Below are positions 15,496-37,736 of a DNA stretch of 42,954 bases, one piece after another. The position numbers were made by a program, and so were the translations under genes. The DNA is taken from positions 1-42,954 of the forward strand of contig CAINFN010000023.1 in NCBI GenBank assembly GCA_903848125.1. Reading direction: 5' to 3'. Position 1 is the first letter of the stretch. Each line of letters starts with the position of its first letter. The DNA comes from an uncultured Bacteroidota bacterium (lineage in GTDB: Bacteria > Bacteroidota > Bacteroidia > Chitinophagales > Chitinophagaceae). Under the pieces are notes generated by a model, which was not told where the DNA came from, ran no database searches, and saw only the letters and a program-made list of their open reading frames with translations.

Positions 15496-15626
15496 GAATA
15501 AACAATCCTCAAATTTTCTCAAGCCTACCCGTTTATGGGGTAGGCTTGAGAAATCATTAGATAAAAATGAATTGGCCTCTTAGATTTTTATCAAGAGGCT
15601 AATTCATTATTGAGGATTGTTTATTC
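15496..15626 (-). repeat. Structured intergenic element: outer 17-bp inverted repeat enclosing hairpin 1, TCTAATGATTT linker and hairpin 2
   Basis: Outer arms 15496-15512/15610-15626 (gaataaacaatcctcaa/ttgaggattgtttattc). Hairpin 15567-15581/15593-15607. Linker aaatcattaga 15551-15561 (minus strand TCTAATGATTT). Hairpin 15515-15530/15538-15553. Confidence 0.85.
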
Positions 15627-16764
15627 TATACACTCTAAGGAAATTTCCTCCTAACACTTTCGCAATGTCTTTATCTGAATAGCCTCTAGCCATTAATGCT
15701 TGTGTAAACTTTGGATAGTCTAATACACTTTTTAATTCTTTAGGTGAAGAATCAATCCCATCAAAGTCAGAACCAATGCCAACATGGTCAATGCCAATTA
15801 ATTTAACAATGTGGTCAAAGTGTTTCATTAATTGTTCTAGGCTAGGTTTGTTGGCTTCGCTTTCGGCAGCAAATTTTTCTGCAAGGGCGCTTTGTGCATA
15901 TTCTCTTTGAATTCCAGTGTTTAATAAAGAATCCAATTCAGCTTGATGCCTGCTTCTAAAAGCGGCATCTTTCTTACCAAAAGTGCTATCCACAAATGCG
16001 GAATAAAAATTAAGATTAATCACACCGCCATTTTTTCCGACAGCTATTATTTGATTGTCTTTTAAATTCCTAGTAACAGGACAAATTGAATAAGCATTAC
16101 TATGCGAAGCGATGACTGGTTTGGTAGTAGTTTTAATAGCATCCCAAAAAGTGGCTTCCCCTACATGGGAGATGTCAACTATGATACCTAGTTTATTCAT
16201 ACGATGAATCACTTCTTTTCCAAAATCAGTAAGCCCTCTTGGGCCTGTATATTTTGGATTTTTTTCATCTGCATGTGAGCTAGCCCATGTGGGAGAGTTG
16301 TTCCAGGTAAGGGTCATATAGCGAACCCCTCTTTTATAAAAAGTATCTAGGCGATCAATATTGTCTTCAATCATATGTCCTCCCTCTACGCCATATTGTG
16401 CTACAATTTTATTTTCTTTTAAAGCCTTTTGAATGGCGCCCCAGCTTTTAGCAATGACAATTTTGTCAGGATTTCGAGAGGCTACTGCCTCTAGCGTATC
16501 CATAGATCTCATGGCCCAAGCGTATGGATTTTTTTTATCACCATCGCACCAAACCGAAAACAACTGATAATCTACTCCCCCTTGTTTAAATCTTTTTAAA
16601 TCTGATTGGTTGATGCCTGTAAGGTCTTGATCAAGGCTTACTTTTTTTTCGATACATGCGGTAATGCAATCATTATGGGTATCTACCAATACCGATTTAA
16701 AATGAATTGCTTGCGCATTTGCATTGGTGGCTATAAAAAGCAAAAGGGGGGCCAAATATTTCAT
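15607..16764 (-). CDS. Membrane dipeptidase (peptidase family M19)
   Basis: VDTHNDC, VEGGHMI, IVDISHVGEATFWD, ASHSNAYSICPVTRNL, IGIDHVGIGSDFDG. ORF track extends to 16812; signal peptide MKYLAPLLLFIATNANAQ implies the start at 16764. Confidence 0.9.
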   Translation of the reverse strand: MKYLAPLLLFIATNANAQAIHFKSVLVDTHNDCITACIEKKVSLDQDLTGINQSDLKRFKQGGVDYQLFSVWCDGDKKNPYAWAMRSMDTLEAVASRNPDKIVIAKSWGAIQKALKENKIVAQYGVEGGHMIEDNIDRLDTFYKRGVRYMTLTWNNSPTWASSHADEKNPKYTGPRGLTDFGKEVIHRMNKLGIIVDISHVGEATFWDAIKTTTKPVIASHSNAYSICPVTRNLKDNQIIAVGKNGGVINLNFYSAFVDSTFGKKDAAFRSRHQAELDSLLNTGIQREYAQSALAEKFAAESEANKPSLEQLMKHFDHIVKLIGIDHVGIGSDFDGIDSSPKELKSVLDYPKFTQALMARGYSDKDIAKVLGGNFLRVYRINNPQ

Positions 16765-16799
16765 AATAATTGATTGTTTTAATTGACAACTAAAATAGC

Positions 16800-16807
16800 T
16801 ATTTTTG
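16800..16807 (+). promoter_or_regulatory. Putative Bacteroidetes -7 element TATTTTTG upstream of prfA
   Basis: TAnnTTTG match 17 nt before the ATG at 16825; TTG triplets upstream. Confidence 0.4.
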
Positions 16808-16824
16808 CTCACCTAAAAACGACT

Positions 16825-17886
16825 ATGTTAGACAAATTAGAAGCCATAAAAGCAAGATTCCAGCAGGTAGGGGTGGCTTTGACAAATCCAGAAATTATCA
16901 ATAACCAATCAGAATTTGGAAAATTGAGTAAGGAATACCGTTCTCTCGAGCGAATCAATATTCCTTATGAGCGTTATTTGAAGGTATTGGATGAGCATAA
17001 GTTTGCTAAGGAAACATTAAATGGAGACGATGCAGATATGAGAGAATTGGCCAAATTAGAAATGCCTGGATTGGAGACAGAAAAAGAAAGCCTAGAAAAA
17101 GAATTGACAAAATTATTGATACCCAAAGATCCTCAGGATGATAAAAATGCCATCATTGAATTAAGAGCAGGCACAGGAGGGGATGAAGCAAGTTTATTTG
17201 TAGGTGATTTACTTACCATGTATACAAGGTATTGTCAGAAAAAAGGATGGAAAGTAGCGCTAGTAAGTGAAAGTGAAGGTTCTGTGGGTGGCTATAAGGA
17301 AGTGATATTAGAAGTAATGGGTGAAGATGTGTATGGCACCATGAAATTTGAAAGTGGCGTGCACCGTGTACAACGTGTACCTTCTACCGAAACGCAAGGT
17401 AGAGTGCATACTTCAGCAGCAACAGTTGCGGTGATGCCCGAAGCGGAAGAGGTTGATTTTGTGTTGAATCCTGCAGATGTAAAAATGGAAACTTCAAGAA
17501 GTGGAGGAGCAGGTGGACAGAATGTAAATAAAGTGGAGACCAAAGTAATGTTAACGCATATCCCTACAGGTACGGTGATCATTTGTCAAACAGAACGTTC
17601 TCAGTTGGGTAATCGTGAAAAAGCAATGACCATGATGCGTACCAAATTATTTGAAGAACAAGTGCGTAAGCAAGAAGATGAAATATCAAGACATCGTAAA
17701 ACTTTGGTAAGTACTGGAGATAGAAGTGCAAAAATTAGAACCTACAATTGGCCGCAAGGCAGAGTAACCGATCATAGAGTGGGTGTCACTTCTTACAATT
17801 TAGATGCGGTGATAAATGGTGAGATTGAAGAATTTATTGAAGCATTGCAAGTGGCAGAGAATGCAGCTAAGATGTTGGTGCAGTAA
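16825..17886 (+). CDS. prfA: Peptide chain release factor 1
   Basis: GGQ motif [20 protein letters not shown]1-type N-terminus [18 protein letters not shown] at 16825 rather than the ORF-track start 16783. Confidence 0.95.
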
Positions 17887-17899
17887 TAATAGGTTGTAA

Positions 17900-18916
17900 T
17901 TATTTTGCTAAACTTTTTTCCCATTCCCAAGCAGTACGCATCATTTCATTTAAGTCATATTGACAAGTCCAGCCTAATTTTTTTACAGCATAGTCATTGT
18001 TGGCATAGATAGCAACAATATCCCCAACTCTTCTTGGGCCTATTTCATAATTTAATTTAATGCCAGCTACTTTTTCAAAAGCCTGAATGGCTTCCAATAC
18101 AGTGATGCCATTGCCGGTACCTAGATTAAATATTTCGCAGCTATTTGCTTTGTCATTTTTGATAGAATATTGCAAAGCCAAAGTGTGCGCGTGTGCGATA
18201 TCACAAACGTGAATATAATCACGAATACAACTACCATCACGCGTATCATAGTCGTTGCCATGCACATGCATTTTAGGTAATTTACCAATTGCAGTTTGGG
18301 TAATGGCAGGCACTAAGTTTTGTGGACGTCCAATAGGCAATTCTCCAATGGCAATAGAAGGATGGGCGCCCACTGGATTAAAATACCTTAAAAGAATGGT
18401 AGACAAAGGATGTGCGGTAGCACTATCTTGAACAATGGTTTCACCCATTTGCTTGGTAGCACCATAGGGTGATGCGGCTGTTTTTATGGCGGTTTGTTCA
18501 GTTACTGGAATGGCATCTGGATTGCCATAAACGGTACAAGAGGATGAAAAGATAAAATGTTTTGCATGGTACTTAACAGCCAATTGCAACAAGTGTATTA
18601 ATGAAAATAAATTATTCTCGTAATAGTCTAAAGGTTTTTCAACTGATTCACCCACCGCTTTGTAGGCAGCAAAATGAATAATGCCTTTAATCGAAGGATG
18701 GTCTTTAAAAATTTGTTCTGTTGTTTCTTTATTGGTTAAATCAATAACATAGTTCTTGATTTTTTTACCCGTAATTTTTTCAATTCCTAGTAATGAATCA
18801 GCGGAAGCCCTGGATAAATTATCTACAGAAATCACCTCAAATCCATTTTGAATTAAATCAACAATGGTATGAGCTCCAATAAAGCCACAACCTCCAGTTA
18901 CTAAAATAGTTTGCAT
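17900..18916 (-). CDS. galE: UDP-glucose 4-epimerase
   Basis: 338 aa; ILVTGGCGFIGAHTIVDL, SSSCTVYG, SPYGATKQMGE, LRYFNPVGAHPS. Confidence 0.93.
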   Translation of the reverse strand: MQTILVTGGCGFIGAHTIVDLIQNGFEVISVDNLSRASADSLLGIEKITGKKIKNYVIDLTNKETTEQIFKDHPSIKGIIHFAAYKAVGESVEKPLDYYENNLFSLIHLLQLAVKYHAKHFIFSSSCTVYGNPDAIPVTEQTAIKTAASPYGATKQMGETIVQDSATAHPLSTILLRYFNPVGAHPSIAIGELPIGRPQNLVPAITQTAIGKLPKMHVHGNDYDTRDGSCIRDYIHVCDIAHAHTLALQYSIKNDKANSCEIFNLGTGNGITVLEAIQAFEKVAGIKLNYEIGPRRVGDIVAIYANNDYAVKKLGWTCQYDLNEMMRTAWEWEKSLAK

Positions 18917-18953
18917 TAAAAAATATTAGAATACAAAGTAACGAAAAAAAACT

Positions 18954-20003
18954 TTAGGAAGCCTTATTGGCTAAGGTAAATCCAACAGTGGTACCCACGC
19001 CCAATTTGCTTCTAATGTGCATGGTTTCATTGTGCGCTTCAATAATGTGTTTACAAATAGCTAATCCAAGACCGGTGCCTCCAATTTCTCTACTTCTGGC
19101 GTCGTCTGTTCGATAAAAACGCTCAAATAATCTTGGAATGTGTTCTTCTGCTATGCCTATTCCGTCGTCACTTACCTCTATTAAAATTTTCTGGCCTTCG
19201 ATAGAATAAACACTTGCTATAATGTGCCCATCTACTTTGCCGTATTTGGATGCGTTGGAAAGGATATTTACAATCACCTGGTATACTTTATTCTTATCAG
19301 CAAAAACATGAATTGGTGTTTCAGTTCCCTTCTTAAAACTAAATTGAATATTTTTTTGAATCCATTTCACATTTAAATTATTGGCTGCTTCAGAAATTAA
19401 GTCTTGAATAATAAAAGATTGTTTTAAAATAGGATCTTTATTAATTTCAAGATTAGTAATAGAATCTACATCATTGAGTAGCTGAACCAATCTTTGTACA
19501 TTAGATTGCGCTTTATTGATAAATCTTTTTCCAGTGATTGGGTCGTCAATGGCACCATCATCCAATAATTCTAAATAACCTTGTATGGCAAAGACAGGCG
19601 TCTTAATTTCGTGCGAAAGATTTTGTAAAAACTCTTTTCTAAAAGCTTCATTGGATTGAAGCGCGAGAATTTCTTTTGTTTTTTGAGCAGCCCATTCTTC
19701 CACATCTGCCCTTACTTCATCAATTCCTTTTTGCGGTAAAATGTACTTTTGGTAAGCTTCTTCTCTTTTACTTGCTTTGGTTTGTGAAATAAGTTTATAG
19801 ATTAATTTTATTTTACGATAAATAAATCGTTCTAAAATTTCATAAAGTATAAAATAGATGATGGCAAAGCTGACAATAAAATAAACCAATAATAATTGCC
19901 AGTTGGAAAACAAAATAAATACACTTAGTGTAATTAAAGTGGCTAGTAGTAAAGCTGTTAAGGCAGCCAGTTGTTTTGGTGAAAGATTCTTTCCTTTAAA
20001 CAT
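18954..20003 (-). CDS. PhoR-like sensor histidine kinase
   Basis: 349 aa; two TMs, H-box NLSHEIKTPVFAIQGYLELL, N-box NILSNASKYG, G-box GGTGLGLAICKHI. Confidence 0.92.
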   Translation of the reverse strand: MFKGKNLSPKQLAALTALLLATLITLSVFILFSNWQLLLVYFIVSFAIIYFILYEILERFIYRKIKLIYKLISQTKASKREEAYQKYILPQKGIDEVRADVEEWAAQKTKEILALQSNEAFRKEFLQNLSHEIKTPVFAIQGYLELLDDGAIDDPITGKRFINKAQSNVQRLVQLLNDVDSITNLEINKDPILKQSFIIQDLISEAANNLNVKWIQKNIQFSFKKGTETPIHVFADKNKVYQVIVNILSNASKYGKVDGHIIASVYSIEGQKILIEVSDDGIGIAEEHIPRLFERFYRTDDARSREIGGTGLGLAICKHIIEAHNETMHIRSKLGVGTTVGFTLANKAS

Positions 20004-20059
20004 AAATGTGTATAGCCTTGGATAAATAAAAATGCTACAGCAAAGTTATCCTTTTATTG

Positions 20060-20740
20060 CTAATAATCGAACTTGTATCCCACCCCTTTAACAGTAGTAA
20101 TACAATCAATACCAAGCTTTGCTCTTATTTTTCTAATGTGCACGTCAATGGTACGGTCACCTACAATCACATCATTGCCCCAAACCTGAGATAATATTTC
20201 ACCTCTTAAAAAAACTCTTCCTGGTTGTGCCGCTAGTAAGTAAAGTAATTCAAACTCTTTTTTTGCTAATATATAATTCACTCCTTTCAAAGTAGTTTTG
20301 TATTGAGTAAGATCGATGCTTAAATCGTTGCAATTGATTACTTTATTTTGACCTACACTAGGCTGTAATCTTCTAAATAAAGCAGAAATACGACTAATTA
20401 AAACTTTTGGACTAATGGGTTTAGTGATAAAATCATCTCCGCCCAATTCCAACCCTTTGATATGAGAAGCTTCATCATTTAAAGCAGTTAACAATACAAT
20501 TAAAGTTTTATCAAATTGCGAATTGCTTCTTAAGTATTCGCAAACTTCAAAACCAGTTCTTTTTGGCATCATGATGTCTAATATGATGCAATCAGGTGCG
20601 TAGGTGTTTGCTTTTTCTATGGCTTCACTTCCATCTTTTGCAGTGTGCACTTCAAATCCAGCTTTGATCAAATGAAAGCTAATAATTTCAAGGATGTCAG
20701 CTTCATCATCAGCTATTAATATTTTTATAGGTGCTTCCAT
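20060..20740 (-). CDS. OmpR/PhoB-family response regulator
   Basis: 226 aa; receiver domain (DIMMPKRTGFEVCEYL) and winged-helix C-terminus (DRTIDVHIRKIRAKLG...KGVGYKFDY). Confidence 0.93.
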   Translation of the reverse strand: MEAPIKILIADDEADILEIISFHLIKAGFEVHTAKDGSEAIEKANTYAPDCIILDIMMPKRTGFEVCEYLRSNSQFDKTLIVLLTALNDEASHIKGLELGGDDFITKPISPKVLISRISALFRRLQPSVGQNKVINCNDLSIDLTQYKTTLKGVNYILAKKEFELLYLLAAQPGRVFLRGEILSQVWGNDVIVGDRTIDVHIRKIRAKLGIDCITTVKGVGYKFDY

Positions 20741-20847
20741 AGTTTTTTGCTGTTACAAAATTAGTTTTTATATGCCACAACACGTGGACCTATCTATATT
20801 ATCAAATTGTTAACTGACCTTTGAAAATGAGCAGCTGCTGGACCTAA

Positions 20848-21501: not shown

Positions 21502-21503
21502 GA

Positions 21504-22544: not shown

Positions 22545-22658
22545 ATTGCAAATTTACAATGAAATATTTAGTTGCATAAACAACTTTTTACAAAAATGAC
22601 TACATTTAGGGTGTCAAATGGGGCTATTTTATCTCGACCATTTCAAAATACTTATTTT

Positions 22659-23834
22659 ATGCAAGAGGCTTATATCGTGGCAGGCTTTAGGACTGCAGTT
22701 ACAAAAAGTAAAAAGGGAGGATTTAGATTCATGCGTTCGGATGAATTGGCGATTGAAGTCATCAAAGGATTAATGCAATCCTTGCCTCATGTAGATCCGA
22801 AATTAATTGATGATGTAATTGTTGGTAATGCGGTGCCAGAAGCGGAGCAAGGCTTACAATTTGGTAGAATTATTGCAGCCAAAGCATTGGGTATTGAAGT
22901 GCCAGGTATTACCATTAATAGATATTGCGCAAGTGGGTTAGAAAGTATTGCTATGGCTACTGCTAAAATTAGAGCAGGTATGGCAAATTGTATCATTGCA
23001 GGGGGCACAGAGTCCATGTCGATGGTCCCATTTGCAGGCTGGAAAACAGTTCCAGCCTATTCTGTTACGAAGGATGAACCTGATTATTATTTACCTATGG
23101 GATTAACTGCCGAAGCAGTAGCCAATGAATATAAAGTTACAAGAGAAGATCAAGATGCATTCGCTTTGGCTTCGCATCAAAAAGCAAAACACGCAATAGA
23201 CAATGGTTTTTTTAAGAAAGGCATTTTGCCAATCACTGTGAATGAAACGTATGTCAACGAAAAAAATAAAAGGGCGCTACGTAGTTATGTGGTAGACACT
23301 GATGAAGGTGTGAGGGCAGATACTACCCTAGAGGCATTGGCTAAATTAAAGCCAGCCTTTGCTTTGAAAGGTTCTGTGACGGCGGGCAATTCCTCACAAA
23401 CAAGCGATGGGTCTAGTTTTGTAATGGTAATGAGTGAAAAAATGATGCTATCATTAGGCCTTAAGCCAATTGGCAGATTAGTCAATTGTGTCTCTGCCGG
23501 TGTGGAGCCAAGAATCATGGGCATTGGTCCCATTGCAGCTGTGCCAAAAGTGCTTAAACAAGCTGGGATGAAGCTAGATCAAATAGATTTATTTGAATTG
23601 AATGAAGCCTTTGCTTCTCAATCTTTGGCGGTGATCAGAACCCTTGAATTGGATCCGAATAAAGTAAATATCAACGGTGGGGCTATCGCTTTGGGACATC
23701 CTTTAGGCTGTACAGGTAGCAAACTAACGGTTCAAATACTGAACGATTTAGAACGTCTTAATAAGAAATATGGCATCGTGACAGCTTGCGTAGGCGGGGG
23801 TCAGGGCATTGCCGGCATCATTGAAAGATTGTAG
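22659..23834 (+). CDS. Acetyl-CoA C-acyltransferase (thiolase)
   Basis: NRYCASGLESIAMA, GGTESMSMVP, INGGAIALGHPLGCTG, CVGGGQG. ATG at 22659 (MQEAYIVAGFRTAV) is favoured over the ORF-track start 22572. Confidence 0.93.
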   Translation: MQEAYIVAGFRTAVTKSKKGGFRFMRSDELAIEVIKGLMQSLPHVDPKLIDDVIVGNAVPEAEQGLQFGRIIAAKALGIEVPGITINRYCASGLESIAMATAKIRAGMANCIIAGGTESMSMVPFAGWKTVPAYSVTKDEPDYYLPMGLTAEAVANEYKVTREDQDAFALASHQKAKHAIDNGFFKKGILPITVNETYVNEKNKRALRSYVVDTDEGVRADTTLEALAKLKPAFALKGSVTAGNSSQTSDGSSFVMVMSEKMMLSLGLKPIGRLVNCVSAGVEPRIMGIGPIAAVPKVLKQAGMKLDQIDLFELNEAFASQSLAVIRTLELDPNKVNINGGAIALGHPLGCTGSKLTVQILNDLERLNKKYGIVTACVGGGQGIAGIIERL

Positions 23835-24003
23835 ACCCTAATTGAAATATAGGTTCTACAATCTTTCCCTCTAATGATTTTTCAAACCCTATTGGGTTTG
23901 GGAAGGATGTAAATCCTAATAGAAATCTAGGATTTACATCCTTTCCATCTAATGATTTTCAAACCCTATTGGGTTTGGGAAGATTGTAGACCCTAATTGA
24001 AAT
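23823..24003 (+). repeat. Structured intergenic element array: hairpin-linker-hairpin repeated twice plus a truncated third start
   Basis: Hairpin 23823-23840/23850-23867 (spans thiolase stop); linker TCTAATGATTTT 23870-23881; hairpin 23883-23900 (caaaccc-tatt-gggtttg); hairpin 23903-23918/23928-23943; linker 23948-23959; hairpin 23960-23977; 23-bp direct repeat agattgtagaccctaattgaaat at 23826-23848 and 23981-24003. Confidence 0.9.
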
Positions 24004-24113
24004 CTTACCATACATCAAAAACTGAGTGTTTTCTTAGCTTTTTTTACCATTTTTTGCCTAAAAATGGATAGTTTAGAGACTTCATTATTCTTTAAATAAG
24101 CAAACTTTTAACC

Positions 24114-27100
24114 ATGCGTATTACAATTGTCTGAACTCTATTGTTGACATTGACTTTGTCTGTTAGCAATTTGTCGGCTCAAAAATCAAAAAAAGCGTTG
24201 CCAGTTGCAGCGGCTACTGAAACAAAAGTAGATATCAATAAAGTATTTAAAAATTGGAAACCTCGTAATGTGGGTCCAGCTTCAATGAGTGGTCGTGTTA
24301 CTACCATTGATGCAGAAATAACCAATCCAAATAATATTTGGATCGGTGCAGCCTCTGGTGGTGTTTGGAAAACAAATAACAGTGGGGTTAGTTGGACACC
24401 TGTATTTGACGAACAACCTATTTTAAATATTGGCGCATTGGCCATTCAACAATCAAATCCAAGCGTAGTTTGGGTGGGAACTGGAGAAGGTAATCCAAGA
24501 AACTCAGTAAGTATTGGCGAGGGAATTTATAAAACATTGGATGCTGGTAAAACTTGGAAAAGAATGGGCTTGGAGCAAACAAGAAATATTCATAGAGTGA
24601 TTATAGATCCAACCAATCCAAATGTTGTGTATGCAGGCGCTATTGGAAATCCTTATGGACAAAGCAAAAACAGAGGGGTGTACAAAACTACCGATGGTGG
24701 TGAAACTTGGAATCAAATATTGTATACCAATGACACTTCTGGTGTGGGTGATATGATTATGGATCCAAAAAATCCAAATAAATTATTGGTGGCGATGTGG
24801 CATCATTATCGCAATCCATTTCATTTAGAAAGTGGTGGAAAGGGCAGTGGTATTTATATGACCATTGATGGCGGTAAGAATTTTACAAAATTGGGAAAAG
24901 AGAATGGATTGCCTGATGGCAATTTAGGTCGTGTAGGTATTGCTATTAGCAAGTCTAATCCAAACAGAGTATATGCATTAGTAGAATCTACTAAAAGTGG
25001 TTTATATAAAAGTGATGATGGCGGTTATAATTTTACATTAGTAAATGCGCAAAAATCAATTGTTGACAATCGCCCTTTTTATTTCCAAGACATTATATGT
25101 GATCCATTAAATGAAAATACACTTTGGTACATCAGTCAAACTGTGGTGAAAAGCATAGATGCTGGAAAAAGTTTTGAAACTGTAATCCCTTATAGTGGTA
25201 TTCATCCAGATCATCATGCATTTTGGATTCATCCAACTGATAATAAATTAATGTTAGATGGAAATGATGGTGGTATTGGTATTACAAGAGATGGTGGAAA
25301 AACATGGATGTTTGATGAAAAAATTCCAGTGGGTCAATTCTACCATGTAAATGTAGACAATGAAACACCTTATCATATTATGGGGGGAATGCAAGACAAT
25401 GGTTCTTGGAGAGGTCCAGCTTATACTTATATACAAGGCGGCATTAAGAATTTTTATTGGGATAATTTATGGGGTGGAGATGGTTTTGATGTAATGCCTG
25501 ATCAAGAAGATGCCAATTGGGTATATGCAATGAGTCAAGGTGGTTCAGTAGGAAGATACAATACATCAACTGGTGAGCGTTCTTATATTCAACCGCCATC
25601 ACCAGATGCAAAAACGCTTTTACGTTTTAACTGGAATGCTGCCATTGCACAAGATCCATACGATAAAAAAACAATTTATTTTGGTTCTCAATATTTACAT
25701 AAAAGTGTAAATAAAGGGGCTGCATGGAAAGTGATATCTCCAGATTTAACGACCAATGATAGTGCTAAAATAGATCAAACAAATAATGGAGGACTTAGTG
25801 TTGATATTACTGGTGCAGAAAACCATTGTACTATTATCACTATTGCGCCTTCTGCTGTACAAAAAGATTTAATATGGATAGGTACAGATGATGGAAACGT
25901 ACAAGTAACTACTAATGGAGGTCAAACTTGGAGTAATATTACCGCCAACATTACAGGCTTGCCTAAGGGTGCATGGGTACCTCAAATTAGACCATCCACT
26001 TACAATGCCAATGAAGTTTTTGTAGTGGCAAATAATTATAGACAAGGTGATTTTGCTCCTTATATTTTTAGATCAACTGATTTAGGAAAAACTTGGACCA
26101 ATGTTTTAAGTAGTACTAAGGTGACTGGGTATGCATTATCAATCATACAAGATCCAACTGAACCTAATTTATTTTTTGTTGGAACAGAGCAAGGTATGTA
26201 TGTTAGTTTAGACAATACCGAAACCTTTCAACAATGGAAAAACGGATATCCATCTGTTTCTACTTATGATTTTGCTATTCAAGAAAGAGAAGCCGATTTA
26301 GCGATAGCTACTTTTGGTCGTGCAATGTGGGTTTTAGATGATATCAAACCACTTCGTAAGTTAGCACACAATAAAGGAGTTGCTACTAACTTCTTTATAT
26401 CTGCACCTAGTGCAGCAATCAATGCTTCTTATAAAAATGCTACCTATGAGTGGAGTACTTGGGGAATGTATGACGGAACCAATCGCCCTGCTGGCTATCC
26501 TTTTACTGTTTATTTAATAGATAGTCTTAAGAAAGTAAAAGTGCAAATTAAAAATGCTCAAGATTCTGTTATAAGAAATTTAACTTTTAAAGTTGATTCA
26601 GGATTTAACAGACAATACTGGGGCTTTGAACAAAAAGGAAAGCGTGGAGCAGGTATGCCAAAAGCCGGTGGTGGTGGAGGTAGAAGAATGATGGAAGAAA
26701 CACCAGCTGCAGATGCCAATGAAGACAAAGAAATAAGAGGTCGTGATGTATTAGCAGGTAAATACAAAGTAGTGGTGACTGCCAACAATCAAAAAGATTC
26801 TATGTGGATTGAAGTTAAAGATGATAGCAGATTAGCAGACAGAACTGAGGTGGTAAAAAAACAAGACGAGCTAGCTGCTAAACATCAACCTAGTGCTGAT
26901 AAATTTAATAGTGTTATTGATCAATTAGATGAAGTAGATGCTTTGTTGTTACAATTAAAAGCAGAATGGAAAGATAAGAAGGACAAGGGATTAGACACCT
27001 TAAATAAAGCGCATAAAGCGATTACTGCAAAAGCAAAAACATTGCGTGAATACATTTATGGTAAAAAGCAAGAGAAACAAGGATATGGTACAGTGCCAGT

Positions 27101-27323
27101 CATTACACCAATGTCTACTATTAGAGATGCTAATATGTTGGTGTCGGGTAAAAATACCATTCCTGGTGAGCAAGAAGAAAAGAAATTACAAGAAGCTGAA
27201 GTAGCCATTCAAAATGTAATTGCCAAAGGCAATGAATTCTTTACAAAAGATTGGGCTGGTTTTAGAAAATTAGTCGAAGCTACACCAGTAGCTAAGTTTA
27301 AGGATTATGAAACCATAAAATAA
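24114..27323 (+). CDS. Secreted sortilin/VPS10-like BNR-repeat protein; in-frame TGA at codon 7 (possible pseudogene or recoded/alternative start)
   Basis: ATG at 24114 gives MRITIV*TLLLTLTLSVSNLSAQKS; TGA at 24132-24134. The ORF track starts at TTG 24141. Multiple BNR motifs (GGVWKTNNSGVSWTPV, KTTDGGETWNQI). Confidence 0.8.
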
Positions 27324-27328
27324 ATTGC

Positions 27329-27366
27329 AAGCGGGCCCTTAGTGAAAATTAAGGGCCTGCTTTTTT
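27329..27366 (+). terminator. Rho-independent terminator
   Basis: aagcgggccctta-gtgaaaat-taagggcctgctt followed by a T-tract. Confidence 0.85.
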
Positions 27367-27386
27367 AGTATTAAATATTTAAAAAA

Positions 27387-30300
27387 ATGAATAGTATGAA
27401 AAAGATTTTATTAATGGTACTGTCTTTATTTTCTTTACTGCTTTTTACTTCAGTAGATGCGCAAAAGAAAAAAACAGCAGTAGCCAGTGCAGAGCAAGCT
27501 GGTATGGCGCAGGATCCTATTGTTAAAGCGCAAAATTTTAGATTGATAGGTCCATTTAGAGGTGGTAGAGCTGCGGCGGGTGTAGGCTCTTTTAGCGATG
27601 TAAATACTTTTTACATGGGTGCAACTGGAGGTGGTGTTTGGAAAACAACTGATGCTGGAAATAATTGGAAAAATATTTCTGATGGCTTCTTTGGTGGTAC
27701 TATCGGCGCTATTGCCATTGCACCTACCAATGAATCAATTATATATGTAGGAGAAGGGGAGAACAGTATGAGAGGAAATGTAAGTGAAGGGTTAGGTGGC
27801 ATGTGGAAGTCGGTGGATGATGGAAAAACATGGAAAAACATGGGCTTAAAAGAAGCTAGACATATTGTTAGAATTATTGTACACCCAAAAAATCCAGATA
27901 TTATTTGGGCAGCTGTAATGGGCCATTTATTTGGACCTAATGAAACAAGAGGGGTATTTAAAAGTACCGATGGAGGACAAAGCTGGAAAAAAGTATTGTA
28001 TGTTAATCAGCAAACTGGTGCAAGTGATTTAGTCATTGATCCTAGTAATCCAGAAGTATTGTATGCAGGTACCTGGGAATTAATCCGTACGCCCTATAGT
28101 CTAGAAAGTGGAGGAGCGGGTTCTGGTTTATTTAAAAGTACCGATGGCGGAGAAACATGGACTTCAATTAAAACCAATAAAGGATTTCCAAAAGGCGTGT
28201 GGGGGATTACTGCGATTGCAGTTGCAAAATCTAATACGGATAAATTGTATGCCTTAATTGAAAATAAAGACGGTGGTTTGTATATGTCTGAGAATGCAGG
28301 AAAGACTTGGGAATTAGTAAGTAGTGATAACAATATTCGTCAAAGAGCATGGTACTATACCAAAGTATTTGTTGATCCTGCAGATGAAAATAAAGTATAC
28401 TGTCCAAATGTAAACTTTATGGTTTCAACAGATGGTGGTAAAACTTTTGTTACAGGCAGAACTCTACATGGCGATCATCATGATTTATGGATTGATCCTA
28501 AGAATGGTAAGCGTATGATAGTTGCTGATGATGGCGGTGCGCAAGTAAGTTTAGATGGTGCAAAAAATTGGAGTACGGTGATGAACCAACCTACGGTGCA
28601 AGTTTACCGCTTAAGTACGGACAACCATTTCCCATATAGAATTTTAGGAGCACAACAAGACAATTCTGCATTTAGAATTTTATCAAGTTCTTATGGAGCC
28701 TATATTGGTGAAAGCGATTTTGAAGTGACGGCAGGTGGCGAAAGTGGTTATATCGTTGCAGACCCTTTAAACAGTGATGTGGTATATGGCGGTTCTTATG
28801 GAGGATTAATCACGAGATACGATCACAAAACTGGAGAAAACAGAGTGGTGAATGTATGGCCTGATAATCCAATGGGTGCAGGAGCAGATGTACAGAAATA
28901 TCGTTTCCAATGGAATCATCCAATTTTCTTTTCTCCACACAATCCTAAAAAATTATATACAGCGGGCAATCATTTATTTTCTTCTGAAAATGATGGAGCA
29001 AGTTGGACGCAATTATCACCAGATTTAACAACGAATGATAAAAGCAGACAAAAAAGTTCTGGAGGTCCTATCACGCAAGACAATACCAGTGTAGAATATT
29101 ATTGTACCATATTTACAGCAGCTGAATCTCCATTAGAAAAAGATTTATTATGGACAGGAAGTGATGATGGATTAATTAATGTAAGTAAAGATGGTGGTGC
29201 ACATTGGAAAAACGTAACACCTAAAGATATCCCACAATGGATGATGTGGAATAGAGTAGAAGTGGATCCAATCAGAAAAGGAACTGCATATTTTGCCGGA
29301 ACACGTTATAAGCTAGATGATTTTGCACCTTATTTATATGTAACACATGACTATGGTGAAACTTGGGAAAAAATTACGAGTGGAATCAACCCTATGCATT
29401 TCACAAGAGCGATCGTAGCAAGTCCAAGAAAGGCTGGTGTTTTATTTGCAGGCACTGAATATGGATTGTATGTGTCTATGAATGATGGAAAATCTTGGGA
29501 GCCATTGCAATTAAATTTACCGGTTACGCCAGTGACTGATTTATTAATTAGAGATAATAACTTAATTGTAGGTACACAAGGCAGAAGTATCTATGTATTA
29601 GATGACTTATCTTTTATTGAAAACTACCAAGCAAGTAATGTGGCTTCTTCAAAAGTATTCCCAGTAGCGAATGCTTATCGCGTGCCTCCTCAAATGGGTG
29701 GACGTCGCAGCCGTGGTGTAAGAACAGGTATTCCCGCCAATGTGGGTATCAATCCTCCAAAAGGAGTAGTTATTAATTATTGGTTGAAAGACGTAAATGA
29801 TAGTACTACCGTTCAAATTGACATCTTAGATGAAAACAAAAAACTAGTTAGACATTTTAGTTCAAAGGAAACAGGCAAAGACAAATCGGGCATAGTAGTA
29901 GAAAATGGGATGCAACAATTCACTTGGAATTTATACCACAAGGAAATAGAAAAACCAAGCGAAGATTTAATATTATGGAATGGCTCTACTAGTCCTGTAT
30001 TAGCGGCACCTGGTAAATATTTTGCTAAAGTAAGTATTGACAAGGATTCTGTTACGGCTCCTTTTGAAATTATTGCCGATCCAAATTTTAAAGTAGCTAA
30101 TGCGGATTTAAAAGCGCAAGAGCAGTTTTTATTAGAAGTAGCAGGTAGTTTTAATACGGTGATGAAAGCTTTAAAAGGAATTAAAGAGATACGCGGACAA
30201 GTACAAGTTTTACAAAAGAAAACCAAGGATACAAGTTTCCAAAAACAAAGTGAAGCAGTGTTAGCTAACTTAAAAACAGTAGAGGAAGCATTACATCAAA

Positions 30301-30545
30301 CCAAAGCAAAAAGTGGTCAAGATGTTTTAAACTTCCCGATTCGTTTAGATGATAAATTAGCGGGCGTATTTGAATCAGCTGCTGCAGGATATGTAGCGCC
30401 TACCAAACAAGTTAAGGAGGCATATATTGAGTTAAAGGCATTGACTGATGAGCAATTAAAAAAGTATGAAACCATTAAGAAGGAAGGGGTAAAAGCTTTA
30501 AATGAAGCAGTTCATAAATTAATGATTCCTATTATTGGAAATTAA
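27387..30545 (+). CDS. Secreted sortilin/VPS10-like BNR-repeat protein (tandem paralogue)
   Basis: 1052 aa; signal peptide KILLMVLSLFSLLLFTSVDAQ; GGVWKTTDAGNNWKNI, KSVDDGKTWKNMG, KSTDGGQSWKKV; same architecture as the preceding gene. Confidence 0.88.
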   Translation: MNSMKKILLMVLSLFSLLLFTSVDAQKKKTAVASAEQAGMAQDPIVKAQNFRLIGPFRGGRAAAGVGSFSDVNTFYMGATGGGVWKTTDAGNNWKNISDGFFGGTIGAIAIAPTNESIIYVGEGENSMRGNVSEGLGGMWKSVDDGKTWKNMGLKEARHIVRIIVHPKNPDIIWAAVMGHLFGPNETRGVFKSTDGGQSWKKVLYVNQQTGASDLVIDPSNPEVLYAGTWELIRTPYSLESGGAGSGLFKSTDGGETWTSIKTNKGFPKGVWGITAIAVAKSNTDKLYALIENKDGGLYMSENAGKTWELVSSDNNIRQRAWYYTKVFVDPADENKVYCPNVNFMVSTDGGKTFVTGRTLHGDHHDLWIDPKNGKRMIVADDGGAQVSLDGAKNWSTVMNQPTVQVYRLSTDNHFPYRILGAQQDNSAFRILSSSYGAYIGESDFEVTAGGESGYIVADPLNSDVVYGGSYGGLITRYDHKTGENRVVNVWPDNPMGAGADVQKYRFQWNHPIFFSPHNPKKLYTAGNHLFSSENDGASWTQLSPDLTTNDKSRQKSSGGPITQDNTSVEYYCTIFTAAESPLEKDLLWTGSDDGLINVSKDGGAHWKNVTPKDIPQWMMWNRVEVDPIRKGTAYFAGTRYKLDDFAPYLYVTHDYGETWEKITSGINPMHFTRAIVASPRKAGVLFAGTEYGLYVSMNDGKSWEPLQLNLPVTPVTDLLIRDNNLIVGTQGRSIYVLDDLSFIENYQASNVASSKVFPVANAYRVPPQMGGRRSRGVRTGIPANVGINPPKGVVINYWLKDVNDSTTVQIDILDENKKLVRHFSSKETGKDKSGIVVENGMQQFTWNLYHKEIEKPSEDLILWNGSTSPVLAAPGKYFAKVSIDKDSVTAPFEIIADPNFKVANADLKAQEQFLLEVAGSFNTVMKALKGIKEIRGQVQVLQKKTKDTSFQKQSEAVLANLKTVEEALHQTKAKSGQDVLNFPIRLDDKLAGVFESAAAGYVAPTKQVKEAYIELKALTDEQLKKYETIKKEGVKALNEAVHKLMIPIIGN

Positions 30546-30562
30546 TTAAGCTTACCATATAA

Positions 30563-30600
30563 AAAAAGGGGCCCTTAATGAAAATTAAGGGCCCCTTTTT
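30563..30600. terminator. Bidirectional terminator between convergent genes
   Basis: aaaaaggggcccttaa-tgaaaa-ttaagggccccttttt, 16-bp perfect stem. Confidence 0.9.
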
Positions 30601-30619
30601 TATTGTTATTTTTAAAGCT

Positions 30620-31828: not shown

Positions 31829-31860
31829 AAATTAACTGAGTTAAAAAGTGGAGGAGTAAA

Positions 31861-33543: not shown

Positions 33544-33643
33544 GGGCCAAAGGTCGGTTTTTTACCAGAAATAAACTTGCTAAATAAAGAAGTAATTTTT
33601 TTACAGGATAGTAGCTCAACCGAGGCGAAATCTAACTTTTGCC

Positions 33644-34030
33644 TTAGTTTAATTTAATGGGAGCTACCATTTTAAAAGCAGGGATATTGACATGAATTAA
33701 ATCTCTTGTTTCAATATTTTCCATGGTATAATGGCCTTGCATCTTTCCTAATTCACTTTTTAAATGACAGCCACTTACGTATTGGTAGTGTTTTCCTGGC
33801 ATGATTAAAGGCTGAACACCCACCACACCTTCTCCTTCCACCACTCTGTGTTCACTATTGCTGTCAAAAACCTCCCAATAGCGCTTTAATAATTTAACTG
33901 GGAAAGAATTATGGTTTTCAATAGTAATACGGTAAGCAAACATGTACTCATTTTGCAATGGGTTGCTATAATCCTTTTGATAAAAGGTTTCTATGCTTAC
34001 TTCGACTCCTTCTGAAATTTTTGAGACCAT
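33644..34030 (-). CDS. apaG: ApaG (DUF525) family protein
   Basis: 128 aa; YRITIENHNSFPVKLLKRYWEVFDS, GVVGVQPLIMPGKHYQYVSGC. Confidence 0.92.
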   Translation of the reverse strand: MVSKISEGVEVSIETFYQKDYSNPLQNEYMFAYRITIENHNSFPVKLLKRYWEVFDSNSEHRVVEGEGVVGVQPLIMPGKHYQYVSGCHLKSELGKMQGHYTMENIETRDLIHVNIPAFKMVAPIKLN

Positions 34031-34143
34031 AGGAAAACTGAAATTATACCGTTGCAGATAATACTGCGGGATAAAAGTACCAAATATTTGGGCCTATTAT
34101 ATAAAAAGGTAAGCAATTTTTTTCTAAGACCCTATAAGTCGTG

Positions 34144-34151
34144 TAACTTTG
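34144..34151 (+). promoter_or_regulatory. Putative Bacteroidetes -7 element TAACTTTG upstream of icd
   Basis: Exact TAnnTTTG match 61 nt before the ATG at 34212. Confidence 0.45.
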
Positions 34152-34211
34152 CGAAAACGAATGAATTAGTACTAAAAATTACATTGGTTTTCACGCTAAA
34201 ATATACCCAAA

Positions 34212-35663
34212 ATGAAGATCGCAGTAGCAAAAGGAGATGGCATTGGACCAGAGATTATGGAGGCTGTAATTACCATTTTTAATGCCGCAAAAGTGCCTTT
34301 AGAATACGAATTTGTGGATATGGGAAAATGGGTTTTTGACAAAGGCTTTAACAATGGGATGACCTCGCAGGCGAAGGATACCATTGAGGCATTAGGGATC
34401 TTATTTAAAGGTCCTATGGAAACGCCCAAGGGGAAAGGGGTGAAAAGTGTAAATGTAACCGCGAGAAAAACCTGGAATACCTATGCCAATGATCGAAAAT
34501 TTCAAACATTAAGTGGGGTGGATACGGTATTTAGTAAAGCTGGCATTCCAATAGACATTACAATTGTTAGAGAAAACATTGAAGATACCTATGGAGGCAT
34601 TGAACACATGCTTACGCAGGATGTAGCCTTGGGTCGTCGATTTATTACAAGACCAGGAAGTGAGCAGGTCATTAGATATGCTTTTGAGATGGCTAAGAAA
34701 AAAGGAGCAAGAAGAATTACTTGTGGACATAAGGCAAACATCATGAAATTAACAGATGGTTTGTTTTTAGAAGTTTTTAAAGAAGTAGCAAAAGAATATC
34801 CTGAATTAAAAGCAGACGATGTAATTGTAGATGATCTTTGTATGAAATTAGTAAGTCGTCCAGATTTATTTGATGTAGTAGTATTGACTAATTTACAAGG
34901 TGATATTGTGAGCGACTTATGTGCTGGATTAGTTGGTGGGCTTGGGTTTGCGCCCTCTGCCAATATTGGAGATCATATTTCCATTTTTGAAGCAGTACAC
35001 GGTACGGCTCCAGATATTGCAGGAAAAAATATTGCCAATCCAACTTCTTTATTATTAAGTGGATTAAGCATGTTGCGTCATTTGGGTTTAATGGAGCAAG
35101 CCATCTCAATTGAAAATGCATTATTGTTTACTTTAGAATCAGGTGTGCATACAGGTGACTTTGGTGATAAAACAATTCCTTCGGTGAATACGACTGTATT
35201 TGCGCAAGCCATCATTGATAATTTTGGAAAGCAACCAAAGCACAATCCAAAACCATTGTTGCCTAATTTTTATGTAACACCAACTAATTTCAAGCTGGAG
35301 CACAATCCAATGTTACAGAGTAATTTAAATGACGATCATAAAATTGTGGGGGTTGATTTCTTTATAGAAAGCAATGATCAACCACAAGTAATTGCCGACC
35401 GATGTTTAAGTCACACCACAGAGGCGCTTAAATTAGTAACGATTACGAATAGGGGTACACAGGTTTGGCCTTCAGGATCCATTTTTACCAATTTAGTGAA
35501 CCAATATTATTGTCGATTTGAAACAATAGATTCAAAACCTTTATCTCAGAATGATGTGATTGATTTATACCGTGCTTTGGCCATTGATTTTAAAATTTGT
35601 TCATTAGAGATATTGAACATGTGGGCAGATAAAAAAGCCTATAGTTTGGCCCAAGGGCAATAG
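34212..35663 (+). CDS. icd: NADP-dependent isocitrate dehydrogenase, long form with C-terminal extension
   Basis: 483 aa; VAKGDGIGPEIMEAV, TIVRENIEDTYGGIEHM, DVVVLTNLQGDIVSDLCAGLVGGLG, EAVHGTAPDIAGK. Confidence 0.9.
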   Translation: MKIAVAKGDGIGPEIMEAVITIFNAAKVPLEYEFVDMGKWVFDKGFNNGMTSQAKDTIEALGILFKGPMETPKGKGVKSVNVTARKTWNTYANDRKFQTLSGVDTVFSKAGIPIDITIVRENIEDTYGGIEHMLTQDVALGRRFITRPGSEQVIRYAFEMAKKKGARRITCGHKANIMKLTDGLFLEVFKEVAKEYPELKADDVIVDDLCMKLVSRPDLFDVVVLTNLQGDIVSDLCAGLVGGLGFAPSANIGDHISIFEAVHGTAPDIAGKNIANPTSLLLSGLSMLRHLGLMEQAISIENALLFTLESGVHTGDFGDKTIPSVNTTVFAQAIIDNFGKQPKHNPKPLLPNFYVTPTNFKLEHNPMLQSNLNDDHKIVGVDFFIESNDQPQVIADRCLSHTTEALKLVTITNRGTQVWPSGSIFTNLVNQYYCRFETIDSKPLSQNDVIDLYRALAIDFKICSLEILNMWADKKAYSLAQGQ

Positions 35664-35786
35664 ATTCCTTGCTTTTGGATAATTAGCCTTTAATTTGACT
35701 CTTTTTACTATAAAATTGCTTTTTTGGGTGGGAAAAAAACATTTTTGATGTAATTTCACGCCTAATTACAAAATGTACTTTTACCT

Positions 35787-37427
35787 ATGGCTGAAGTTAT
35801 CTTAATGCCCCGTTTAAGCGATACCATGACCGAAGGGGTGGTAGCTGCATGGCATAAAAATGTGGGAGACACCGTTAAAAAGGGGGATCTATTAGCCGAG
35901 ATTGAAACGGATAAAGCAACTATGGAATTAGAAAGCTATCAAGATGGTGTTTTATTACACATAGGAACATCAAGAGGCGGAAAATTACAAGTGAACGACT
36001 TATTGGCGATATTCGGAAAAGCAGGAGAAGACGTAACTGCTTTAATTGCTCAAAATACCATGGGTGCTGCAGCTACATCAGCACCTGCTATACCATCCAC
36101 TACATCCACTGAAAACATTCCTACTGCAACAGCTACTGCAGTTGCCGATCTTAGCGCAATGGAAGAAGTAGTATTGATGCCACGTTTAAGTGATACCATG
36201 ACCGAAGGGGTGATTGCTGGATGGCATAAAAAAATTGGAGACAAAGTTACTAAAGGTGAAGTGTTAGCTGATATTGAAACTGATAAAGCCACCATGGAAT
36301 TAGAGTCTTATAAAGATGGGATCTTATTATACCAAGGAGCACAAGCAGGAGAAAAAATATTGGTCAATCAATTGTTGTGTATCATTGGACAACCTGGTTT
36401 AGACATTGATAGTATTGTAAAGTCTGTTAAAGCCAATAGTGCGCCTAAGGAAGAAGCTAAAGCGGAACCAATGGCAACGCCAGTTGCATCAGCTCCTGTT
36501 TCATCTACCCCAGTAATGGCAGCACCTGTAGCTAGTGCACCAACAGCAGTGGTAAACGAAGGAAGAATATTTGCTTCTCCATTGGCGAAAAAAATTGCAA
36601 AAGACAAAGGCATTGATTTAAAATATGTGCAAGGCACAGGGGAACATGGAAGAATTACCAGAACCGATTTAGAAAATTATAAACCAGTTGCAAATAATAC
36701 ATCAGCCGTAAGAACTGCAACTGTTAAAAGTAATTTTGTTGGTCAAGTAAGTTTTGTAGATACGCCTGTTTCACAAATGCGTAAAGTAATTGCTAAACGT
36801 TTAAGTGAAAGTTTATTTACTGCACCGCATTTTTATTTAACCATGAAAATTAACATGGACGCGGTTGTGGCAGCAAGAGCTGTTGTAAATGAATCGGCGC
36901 CAGTTAAAATTAGCTTTAATGATTTTATAGTAAAAGCGGTAGCGCTTTCTTTGAAACAACATCCAAAAGTAAACAGCAGTTGGTTGGGTGATGTCATTCG
37001 CGAAAATCATCATGTAAACATTGGTATTGCAGTGGCTGTTGATGAAGGATTATTGGTGCCAGTACTTCGCTATGCAGATGGACTTAGCTTAGATGAAATA
37101 AGTGTTTCAGTAAAAGAGTTCGCTAAAAAAGCAAAAGATAAAAAATTACAACCTGCAGATTGGGAAGGAAGCACTTTTACCATTTCTAATTTAGGTATGT
37201 TTGGAATAGATCAATTTACAGCCATTATTAATCCTCCAGATGCTTGTATTTTAGCAGTGGGTGGTATTGCACAAGAGCCCGTGGTAAAAAATGGACAAGT
37301 GGTTCCAGGAAATGTAATGAATGTGACTTTAAGTTGTGACCATAGAGTAGTGGATGGCGCCACCGGATCTGCGTTCTTACAAACTTTGAAAAGCTATTTA
37401 GAAGAACCTATAAGAATGTTTGTGTAG
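35787..37427 (+). CDS. Dihydrolipoamide acyltransferase E2 (pyruvate dehydrogenase-type) with two lipoyl domains
   Basis: 546 aa; two lipoyl motifs (EIETDKATMELESYQDG, DIETDKATMELESYKDG), peripheral-subunit-binding domain ASPLAKKIAKDKGIDL, catalytic LSCDHRVVDGA. Confidence 0.92.
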   Translation: MAEVILMPRLSDTMTEGVVAAWHKNVGDTVKKGDLLAEIETDKATMELESYQDGVLLHIGTSRGGKLQVNDLLAIFGKAGEDVTALIAQNTMGAAATSAPAIPSTTSTENIPTATATAVADLSAMEEVVLMPRLSDTMTEGVIAGWHKKIGDKVTKGEVLADIETDKATMELESYKDGILLYQGAQAGEKILVNQLLCIIGQPGLDIDSIVKSVKANSAPKEEAKAEPMATPVASAPVSSTPVMAAPVASAPTAVVNEGRIFASPLAKKIAKDKGIDLKYVQGTGEHGRITRTDLENYKPVANNTSAVRTATVKSNFVGQVSFVDTPVSQMRKVIAKRLSESLFTAPHFYLTMKINMDAVVAARAVVNESAPVKISFNDFIVKAVALSLKQHPKVNSSWLGDVIRENHHVNIGIAVAVDEGLLVPVLRYADGLSLDEISVSVKEFAKKAKDKKLQPADWEGSTFTISNLGMFGIDQFTAIINPPDACILAVGGIAQEPVVKNGQVVPGNVMNVTLSCDHRVVDGATGSAFLQTLKSYLEEPIRMFV

Positions 37428-37492
37428 GAATAGTTATCATTAAGCCTTTTAATAAATCTAAGGCTTAACGATAACATGCTCTAATGATTTTT

Positions 37493-37528
37493 AAAAAAAC
37501 CTCCCCGAGAAATCGAGGAGGTTTTTTT
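37493..37528. terminator. Hairpin B of the array, terminator-like
   Basis: aaaaaaacctcc-ccgagaaatcga-ggaggttttttt. Confidence 0.85.
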
Positions 37529-37537
37529 TGGCAATAA

Positions 37538-37569
37538 ATTAGCGCTTAAGAAAATATAAGCGCTAATTT
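37538..37569 (+). repeat. 32-bp hairpin direct repeat, copy 1 (second copy 37680-37711)
   Basis: attagcgcttaagaaaatataagcgctaattt, repeated 142 bp downstream with one difference (g to a). Confidence 0.9.
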
Positions 37570-37642
37570 TTTTTCCTATAATGATTTTTTCGAGGGACCC
37601 CATAAACGGGCCCCTCTATTTTTTTAAACTCTAATGATTTTA

Positions 37643-37675
37643 AAAAAGTCCCCACGATATTCGTGGGGACTTTTT
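37643..37675. terminator. Hairpin E of the array, terminator-like
   Basis: aaaaagtccccacga-tat-tcgtggggacttttt, 15-bp perfect stem. Confidence 0.85.
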
Positions 37676-37679
37676 AGGT

Positions 37680-37711
37680 ATTAGCGCTTAAGAAAATATA
37701 AACGCTAATTT
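37680..37711 (+). repeat. 32-bp hairpin direct repeat, copy 2
   Basis: attagcgcttaagaaaatataaacgctaattt; see 37538-37569. Confidence 0.9.
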
Positions 37712-37736
37712 AATTTTTGCTCTAATGATTTTTTAG

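What the first reader, a model, noticed from the sequence alone, without database searches (positions are those of the whole stretch)
15496..37732. Candidate new family of structured 3'-end elements: stop codon - hairpin 1 (A-rich loop) - TCTAATGATTT(T) - hairpin 2, at three loci
Seen directly: the linker TCTAATGATTT occurs six times (15551-15561 minus; 23870, 23948, 37480, 37630, 37721 plus) and once with a single mismatch (37577), always in intergenic DNA and not in any CDS I scanned. At each locus the order relative to the upstream gene is the same. A hairpin starts at or within a few nt of the stop codon, then comes the linker, then a second hairpin. Hairpin-1 stems differ (gaaagattgtaga-ccta, aaggatgtaaatccta, gttatcattaagcctt, aaattagcgctta, atgaattagcctctt) but are self-complementary. 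Their loops share an A-rich core: attGAAATATAgg, ataGAAATCTAgg, ttaaTAAATCTAagg, agAAAATATAag, gataAAAATCTAag. Variable paired stems with a conserved loop and linker is the pattern expected of a selected nucleic-acid structure. Inference: an RNA 3'-end/terminator/insulator element, or a DNA hairpin element mobilised or bound by a host factor. I do not recognise it as a named family.
Basis: partly seen in the sequence, partly recalled or inferred. Interest (0 to 1): 0.82.

Follow-up and report, generated by a model that had tools for sequence, protein, structure and literature searches.

The report
Hairpin-linker-terminator elements after housekeeping genes
One group of freshwater bacteria (small-genome Sediminibacterium) carries, right after the stop codons of about 10-30 housekeeping genes, a previously uncatalogued element made of a long hairpin whose stem sequence changes freely but stays paired, a fixed 13-letter linker, and usually a transcription terminator; what reads it is unknown.

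Summary
230 distinct copies share this layout: stop codon, hairpin 1 (about 10-20 bp of any sequence), loop with an AA core, CTCTWATGATTTT, then usually a T-tailed terminator hairpin. Loop core and linker keep a fixed distance. Stems covary strongly, and orthologous genes show 42 double compensatory changes against 10 single ones. No Rfam family matches. Copies occur only in one clade of Sediminibacterium (single origin on a PdhC tree, 100/99), mostly 8-33 per genome, after housekeeping genes (pdhC, nrdA, acnA, rplT, fusA, ahpC, sucC, rho). They follow orthology rather than genome, and Y1 transposase is absent from carriers, so they are not mobile REP-type repeats now. The fold may therefore be selected on the opposite strand, which also serves the neighbour in the 70% of arrays between convergent genes. 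Best guess: a clade-specific 3'-end module in front of an intrinsic terminator, read by an unknown factor. The mechanism is inferred.

The parts
15563..15611 (-). Locus 1, hairpin 1 (19-bp arms 15563-15581 / 15593-15611, two mismatches) starting at the stop codon (15607-15609) of the M19 dipeptidase gene
15550..15562 (-). Locus 1, linker ATCTAATGATTTC
15515..15553 (-). Locus 1, hairpin 2 (16-bp perfect arms, loop CCCATAAACGGG), no T-run after it
15496..15626 (.). Locus 1, extra outer 17-bp perfect inverted repeat (15496-15512 / 15610-15626) that encloses the element; one arm is the last codons of the dipeptidase gene
23823..23867 (+). Locus 2, first hairpin 1 (18-bp arms), contains the stop codon (23832-23834) of the thiolase gene
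23869..23881 (+). Locus 2, first linker CTCTAATGATTTT
23880..23903 (+). Locus 2, first hairpin 2 (TCAAACCCTATTGGGTTTGGGA), no T-run
23899..23947 (+). Locus 2, second (tandem) hairpin 1, 20-bp arms
23947..23959 (+). Locus 2, second linker ATCTAATGATTTT
23957..23981 (+). Locus 2, second hairpin 2
23977..24004 (+). Locus 2, truncated third copy: 5' arm and loop of a hairpin 1 only
   Evidence: pairs with 23850-23868
37433..37475 (+). Locus 3, unit 1 hairpin 1, begins 5 nt after the stop codon (37425-37427) of pdhC (dihydrolipoamide acyltransferase)
37479..37491 (+). Locus 3, unit 1 linker
37493..37528 (+). Locus 3, unit 1 hairpin 2: A-tract / GC stem / T-tract terminator hairpin
37533..37572 (+). 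Locus 3, unit 2 hairpin 1
37576..37588 (+). Locus 3, unit 2 linker CTATAATGATTTT
37592..37616 (+). Locus 3, unit 2 hairpin 2 (loop CCCATAAACGGG)
37629..37641 (+). Locus 3, third linker, without a hairpin 1 of its own
37643..37675 (+). Locus 3, hairpin after the third linker: perfect bidirectional terminator-like hairpin
37680..37709 (+). Locus 3, unit 4 hairpin 1 (11-bp arms, 91%), folds no better than shuffles
37720..37732 (+). Locus 3, fourth linker, ends 4 nt before the stop codon of the convergent Met-zincin gene (37737-40145, minus)

Best explanation
A vertically inherited, clade-specific 3'-end element of small-genome Sediminibacterium. SHOWN: the anatomy is stop codon at the foot of hairpin 1 (HP1), about 10-20 bp of free sequence, a loop with AA core, a fixed distance, then the 13-nt CTCTWATGATTTT, then usually an intrinsic-terminator-like hairpin (HP2). 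HP1 pairing is maintained while its sequence drifts. Loop core and linker are conserved in sequence and register. The element follows housekeeping genes, can be tandemly repeated at about 89 nt, and is confined to one clade. INFERRED: HP2 ends transcription. HP1 plus linker form a composite recognition site, structure plus sequence at a fixed register, for a trans-acting factor (an RNA-binding protein or nuclease) that sets or protects the RNA 3' end of these abundant transcripts. Where two genes converge the same module serves the neighbour's transcript from the other strand, which would explain the opposite-strand wobble signature.
For: Covariation: 0.571 against 0.212 +- 0.017 shuffled on a MAFFT alignment with no structure fitted, and 0.732 against 0.208 on the model-fitted set. 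Orthologues: 42 double compensatory changes against 10 single changes in the pairs compared. Loop AA 92-94% and linker positions 88-99% conserved apart from one W position. Fixed loop-to-linker distance, 23.7 +- 1.4 nt. HP1 stem starts within -15..+10 nt of the stop codon in 149 of 178 first units, mode -2. In arrays between same-strand genes the element follows the upstream gene: 47 against 2 doubtful ORF calls. HP2 found in 161 of 225, T-tailed in 135. Housekeeping genes upstream. Vertical inheritance: HP1 similarity 0.65 same gene against 0.50 different gene, inside or between genomes. One origin on a PdhC tree. Relatives without the element have ordinary terminators at pdhC.
Against: No transcript data were available, so neither termination nor factor binding is shown. 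The A.C over G.T pattern is the reverse of what selection on the upstream gene's mRNA predicts and is also seen, more weakly, in non-convergent arrays (7 against 16, p = 0.09). No factor was identified. Some HP2 have no T-run, and 64 of 225 downstream stretches scored no HP2.
Confidence: 0.5

Rival explanations
1. Opposite-strand structure: the functional fold is on the strand complementary to the upstream gene (HP2' - AAAATCATWAGAG - HP1'), either as the 3' end of the convergent neighbour's mRNA, as an antisense RNA, or as bottom-strand single-stranded DNA bound by a protein.
For: HP1 mismatches G.T 9 against A.C 35 (9 against 25 after collapsing related copies) and HP2 3 against 20, while ordinary terminators in the same genus show 20 against 9 (Fisher p about 1e-4 to 1e-3). 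C.T/T.C mismatches 41 against G.A 3, often tandem, so tandem G.A on the other strand. Imperfect stems are 1.4 kcal/mol more stable as antisense RNA. 108 of 155 arrays lie between convergent genes and the bias is strongest there, 7 against 29.
Against: The element is anchored to the upstream gene's stop codon, not to the neighbour's. No Bacteroidota-type promoter on the opposite strand within 215 nt downstream. No T-run follows HP1 on the opposite strand. The tandem C.T copies may share one ancestor.
Confidence: 0.25
2. Stem pairing is kept by DNA template switching between the arms (quasi-palindrome correction) rather than by selection on the fold; only loop and linker are selected.
For: 42 double changes with only 10 single changes among orthologues, half of the doubles being A-T/T-A flips that cannot pass through a G.U state. 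Later tandem copies often keep only the inner part of the 5' arm. Template switching is known to create and maintain hairpins (PMC8794818).
Against: First copies have longer stems than later tandem copies (median 16 against 12 bp, p = 4e-8), and stem start and length are tied to the stop codon and linker, which a blind mutation process would not do.
Confidence: 0.15
3. Repeated 3'UTR-derived small RNAs with a shared single-stranded seed (CUCUWAUGAUUUU) between two protective hairpins.
For: Architecture (hairpin, single-stranded conserved stretch, terminator), tandem copies, abundant parent transcripts.
Against: No clear enrichment of the complementary sequence around 371 translation starts (9 to 23 of 100 shuffled linkers do as well). 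The conserved loop and fixed register are not needed for a seed.
Confidence: 0.06
4. Relic of a REP/RAYT- or IS200/IS605-type mobile hairpin.
For: Dispersed palindromes after genes; some similar HP1 cores at different genes.
Against: Y1 transposase (PF01797) absent from every genome with more than two element matches; the two genomes that have both carry only one or two weak element matches. Stems are not shared between copies of a genome more than between genomes. Positions are shared by orthologues.
Confidence: 0.04

Closest known systems
L17 downstream element (Rfam RF01708; Weinberg et al. 2010, PMC2864571)
   Same: Structured candidate element in the potential 3' UTR of a housekeeping gene, lineage-restricted, function unknown; its strand was argued from G-U pairs, the same logic as used here.
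   Different: That one sits at a single gene family in Lactobacillales/Listeria. This one follows dozens of gene families, has a 13-nt single-stranded signature, and is not matched by any Rfam model.
Intrinsic (Rho-independent) terminators, including hairpin clusters after stop codons (PMC8355165)
   Same: HP2 has a GC stem and T-tail; two hairpins close to the stop codon.
   Different: That survey reports no sequence conservation near stop codons or hairpins. Here loop and linker are conserved, and the strand signature of mismatches is reversed relative to ordinary terminators of the genus.
REP/REPIN elements mobilised by RAYT (Y1) transposases
   Same: Short palindromes, extragenic, repeated, close to gene ends.
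   Different: Stem sequence not shared between copies, vertical inheritance, no Y1 transposase in genomes with several copies.
Integron attC sites
   Same: Hairpin directly after a gene's stop codon, free stem sequence, folding of the bottom strand (from general knowledge of attC).
   Different: Ordinary housekeeping genes in conserved positions, no cassette arrays; conservation lies in loop and linker rather than at the ends. Integrase not searched.

Membership tests
Rfam families (release 15) | cmscan score at or above a family's gathering threshold | tested here: not met
   0 matches over the window; permissive searches gave only matches below the gathering scores to unrelated families
Intrinsic terminator (HP2 part) | GC-rich hairpin followed by a T-run on the gene's strand | tested here: met
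   HP2 found in 161 of 225 copies and T-tailed in 135 of those; not met at loci 1 and 2 of the window
Intrinsic terminator (HP1 part) | T-run directly after the stem | tested here: not met
   HP1 is followed by 0-10 nt and CTCTWATGATTTT
Selected RNA secondary structure | covariation above shuffled and slid controls | tested here: met
   orthologue comparison
Selected RNA secondary structure on the upstream gene's mRNA | G.U wobbles tolerated on that strand | tested here: not met
   G.T 9 against A.C 35 in HP1; 3 against 20 in HP2; ordinary terminators 20 against 9
REP/RAYT | Y1 transposase present in genomes with the repeats | tested here: not met
   PF01797 in 12 of 61 congeners; absent from all genomes with more than two element matches; G013 and G031 have Y1 and only two and one weak element matches
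REP/RAYT | copies of one genome more alike than copies of different genomes | tested here: not met
   0.504 against 0.507
L17 downstream element | match to RF01708 and location after rplQ | tested here: not met
   no RF01708 match; genes listed are others
3'UTR-derived sRNA | stable short RNA and base-paired targets | not testable with these tools
   no transcript data; target enrichment test negative

The most novel reading that the evidence does not exclude
A new kind of 3'-end control element selected on the strand opposite the gene it follows: a module at the ends of housekeeping genes whose fold matters in the convergent transcript or in bottom-strand DNA, recognised through a free-sequence hairpin plus a fixed single-stranded tag.
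Probability: 0.25. Interest if true: 0.8.

Novelty: new variant of a known kind. Interest (0 to 1): 0.6.

Why it matters
Structured elements in bacterial 3' UTRs that follow many unrelated genes are rare and mostly unexplained. This family has one apparent origin, a sharp consensus, abundant natural covariation and a clear with/without split inside one genus. That makes it a clean handle on what reads RNA 3' ends in Bacteroidota. The reversed mismatch signature gives a concrete, testable question about which strand is functional.

Tried and rejected
Rfam search (nothing at threshold). Viral collection: 31 pattern hits, none with a strong model score (best 29 bits), taken as chance. Other genera: 0 of 139 in the order. 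Y1 transposase mobility and within-genome copying rejected. Loop-linker pseudoknot (AAAT with ATTT) considered by eye: linker variants do not covary with loops, and the 14-20 bp stem leaves too little linker; not computed. Opposite-strand promoter (TTTG-N19-TAnnTTTG) near the element: not found, while the same scan does recover TAnnTTTG ahead of downstream same-strand genes. sRNA-seed targets at translation starts: no clear enrichment.
Full report
WHAT WAS CHECKED. The linker TCTAATGATTT is present at all stated coordinates. The window is contig C23 of a 1.84-Mb draft genome, 79% complete. Related contigs recovered by pattern are titled Sediminibacterium, Chitinophagaceae or Bacteroidetes, many of them freshwater MAGs, so the host most likely belongs to Sediminibacterium (Chitinophagaceae, Bacteroidota). 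In that genome CTCTAATGATTTT occurs 10 times exactly against one occurrence of the reversed pattern. Congeners show the same enrichment.

ANATOMY. Aligning the context of the linkers in the window and relatives shows one layout: stop codon; hairpin 1 (HP1) with about 10-20 bp of arbitrary sequence; a loop of about 8-13 nt with an AA core (92-94%); CTCTWATGATTTT (each fixed position 88-99%); hairpin 2 (HP2), usually with a T-tail. The distance from loop centre to linker is 23.7 +- 1.4 nt although the paired length varies with an sd of 2.5 bp. HP1 begins at the stop codon: in 149 of 178 first copies the stem starts within -15..+10 nt of it, most often 2 nt inside. Tandem copies repeat at a median of 89 nt. 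In the window there are three loci: after the M19 dipeptidase gene, after a thiolase gene, and after pdhC. Locus 3 carries four linkers but only two complete units.

IT IS A SELECTED STRUCTURE. On a MAFFT alignment made without a structure, the covariation score is 0.571 against 0.212 +- 0.017 in shuffles, and it falls when the partners are slid. On 126 distinct model-aligned copies it is 0.732 against 0.208 (this alignment leans to the model). Between orthologous genes of different species, 42 base pairs changed on both sides and stayed paired, while 10 single changes broke a Watson-Crick pair (21 pairs of sequences, not fully independent). Linker hits inside coding sequence have no comparable hairpin.

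DISTRIBUTION AND HISTORY. A covariance model finds about 14 good copies in the host genome and copies in 38 of 61 congeners, mostly 8-33 per genome; most negatives have genomes of 2.8-4.1 Mb, although a few small genomes are also negative. It finds none in 139 other genera of the order at E <= 0.001 (strict filters). On a PdhC tree of 31 species the carriers form one side of one branch (support 100/99). At pdhC, species without the element mostly have an ordinary single terminator further from the stop codon. HP1 similarity is 0.65 for the same gene in different species but 0.50 for different genes whether in one genome or two, so copies are inherited in place. The upstream genes are housekeeping genes by their sequence: ahpC-like, pdhC, nrdA, acnA, rplT, thiolase, sucC, efp, rho, lysS, carB, fusA, ndk, rpsA and others (names read from the sequences by eye, only window genes confirmed with Pfam).

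WHICH STRAND. This was not expected. In HP1 stems the mismatches on the gene's strand are A.C (35) rather than G.T (9); after collapsing related copies 25 against 9. Column composition predicts an even split. HP2 gives 3 G.T against 20 A.C, while 138 other T-tailed terminators in the same sequences give 20 against 9, as expected for selection on the transcribed RNA (Fisher p 6e-5 for HP1, 0.001 for collapsed HP1 events, and 7e-5 for HP2). Read on the other strand, these become G.U wobbles, and the frequent tandem C.T/T.C mismatches become tandem G.A. Imperfect stems are on average 1.4 kcal/mol more stable as RNA of the opposite strand. The same kind of argument was used for the L17 downstream element (PMC2864571), there in favour of the gene's strand. 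Of 155 arrays whose upstream neighbour lies on the same strand, 108 lie between convergent genes, where the opposite strand is the neighbour's 3' UTR. The bias is strong there (7 against 29, p = 3e-4) and weaker in same-strand neighbourhoods (7 against 16, p = 0.09). No promoter on the opposite strand was found. I therefore treat opposite-strand function as an open rival rather than the main reading.

MECHANISM. Shown: structure, register, gene context, vertical descent. Inferred: HP2 ends transcription; HP1 and linker are read together by a factor acting on RNA 3' ends. Rivals, with evidence, are listed separately. Template switching between arms (PMC8794818) could account for the near absence of intermediates and for the many A-T/T-A flips (21 of 42). 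It does not account for the tie to the stop codon or for longer stems in first copies (median 16 against 12 bp, p = 4e-8).

COMPARISON WITH KNOWN SYSTEMS. No Rfam family matches. HP2 meets the definition of an intrinsic terminator in most copies; HP1 does not. REP/RAYT membership fails on two tested features. A survey of hairpin clusters after stop codons found no conserved sequence near them (PMC8355165), unlike here. The literature library gave no paper on such an element in Sediminibacterium (limited to open-licence papers).

VERDICT. It is a new, lineage-restricted family of composite 3'-end elements, a new variant of a known kind. Its mechanism, and even the functional strand, remain to be shown by experiment.

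Noticed in passing
window 15496-15512 and 15610-15626: A perfect 17-bp inverted repeat encloses the whole element of locus 1, so that the locus could fold as a three-way junction; one arm is the last codons of the dipeptidase gene.
   Followed up: no
L169, L178, L180, L218 (second units): Later tandem copies repeat the 3' arm, loop and linker but have lost the outer 5' arm, as if duplication started inside the inner 5' arm.
   Followed up: partly
L181, L195, L197, L200, L205, L208, L221: Copies at rplT, efp, fusA and other genes share a tandem C.T/T.C internal mismatch about 6 bp from the loop (CTCGCC...GGCTCG); on the other strand this is CGAG/CGAG with tandem G.A.
   Followed up: partly
HP2 of many copies, e.g. 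window 37592-37616: HP2 has two recurrent types, one with loop CCCATAAACGGG and one with CCCGA..TCGGG; the first tends to go with HP1 cores of the type GCCCTTAATAAAATTAAGGGC.
   Followed up: no
window 24141-27323 and 27387-30545: Two large adjacent proteins (1060 and 1052 aa) with a Sortilin-Vps10 domain each.
   Followed up: no
window 30557-30612: An ordinary terminator with an A-rich loop scores weakly with the model although it has no linker.
   Followed up: yes
L237, L271: Contigs labelled Comamonas and Chitinophaga pinensis carry the element; probably mislabelled or mis-binned metagenome assemblies.
   Followed up: no
loci with a same-strand downstream gene: The motif TAnnTTTG is strongly enriched on the gene strand downstream of the element (23 against 4 on the other strand), as expected for Bacteroidota promoters of the next gene.
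   Followed up: partly
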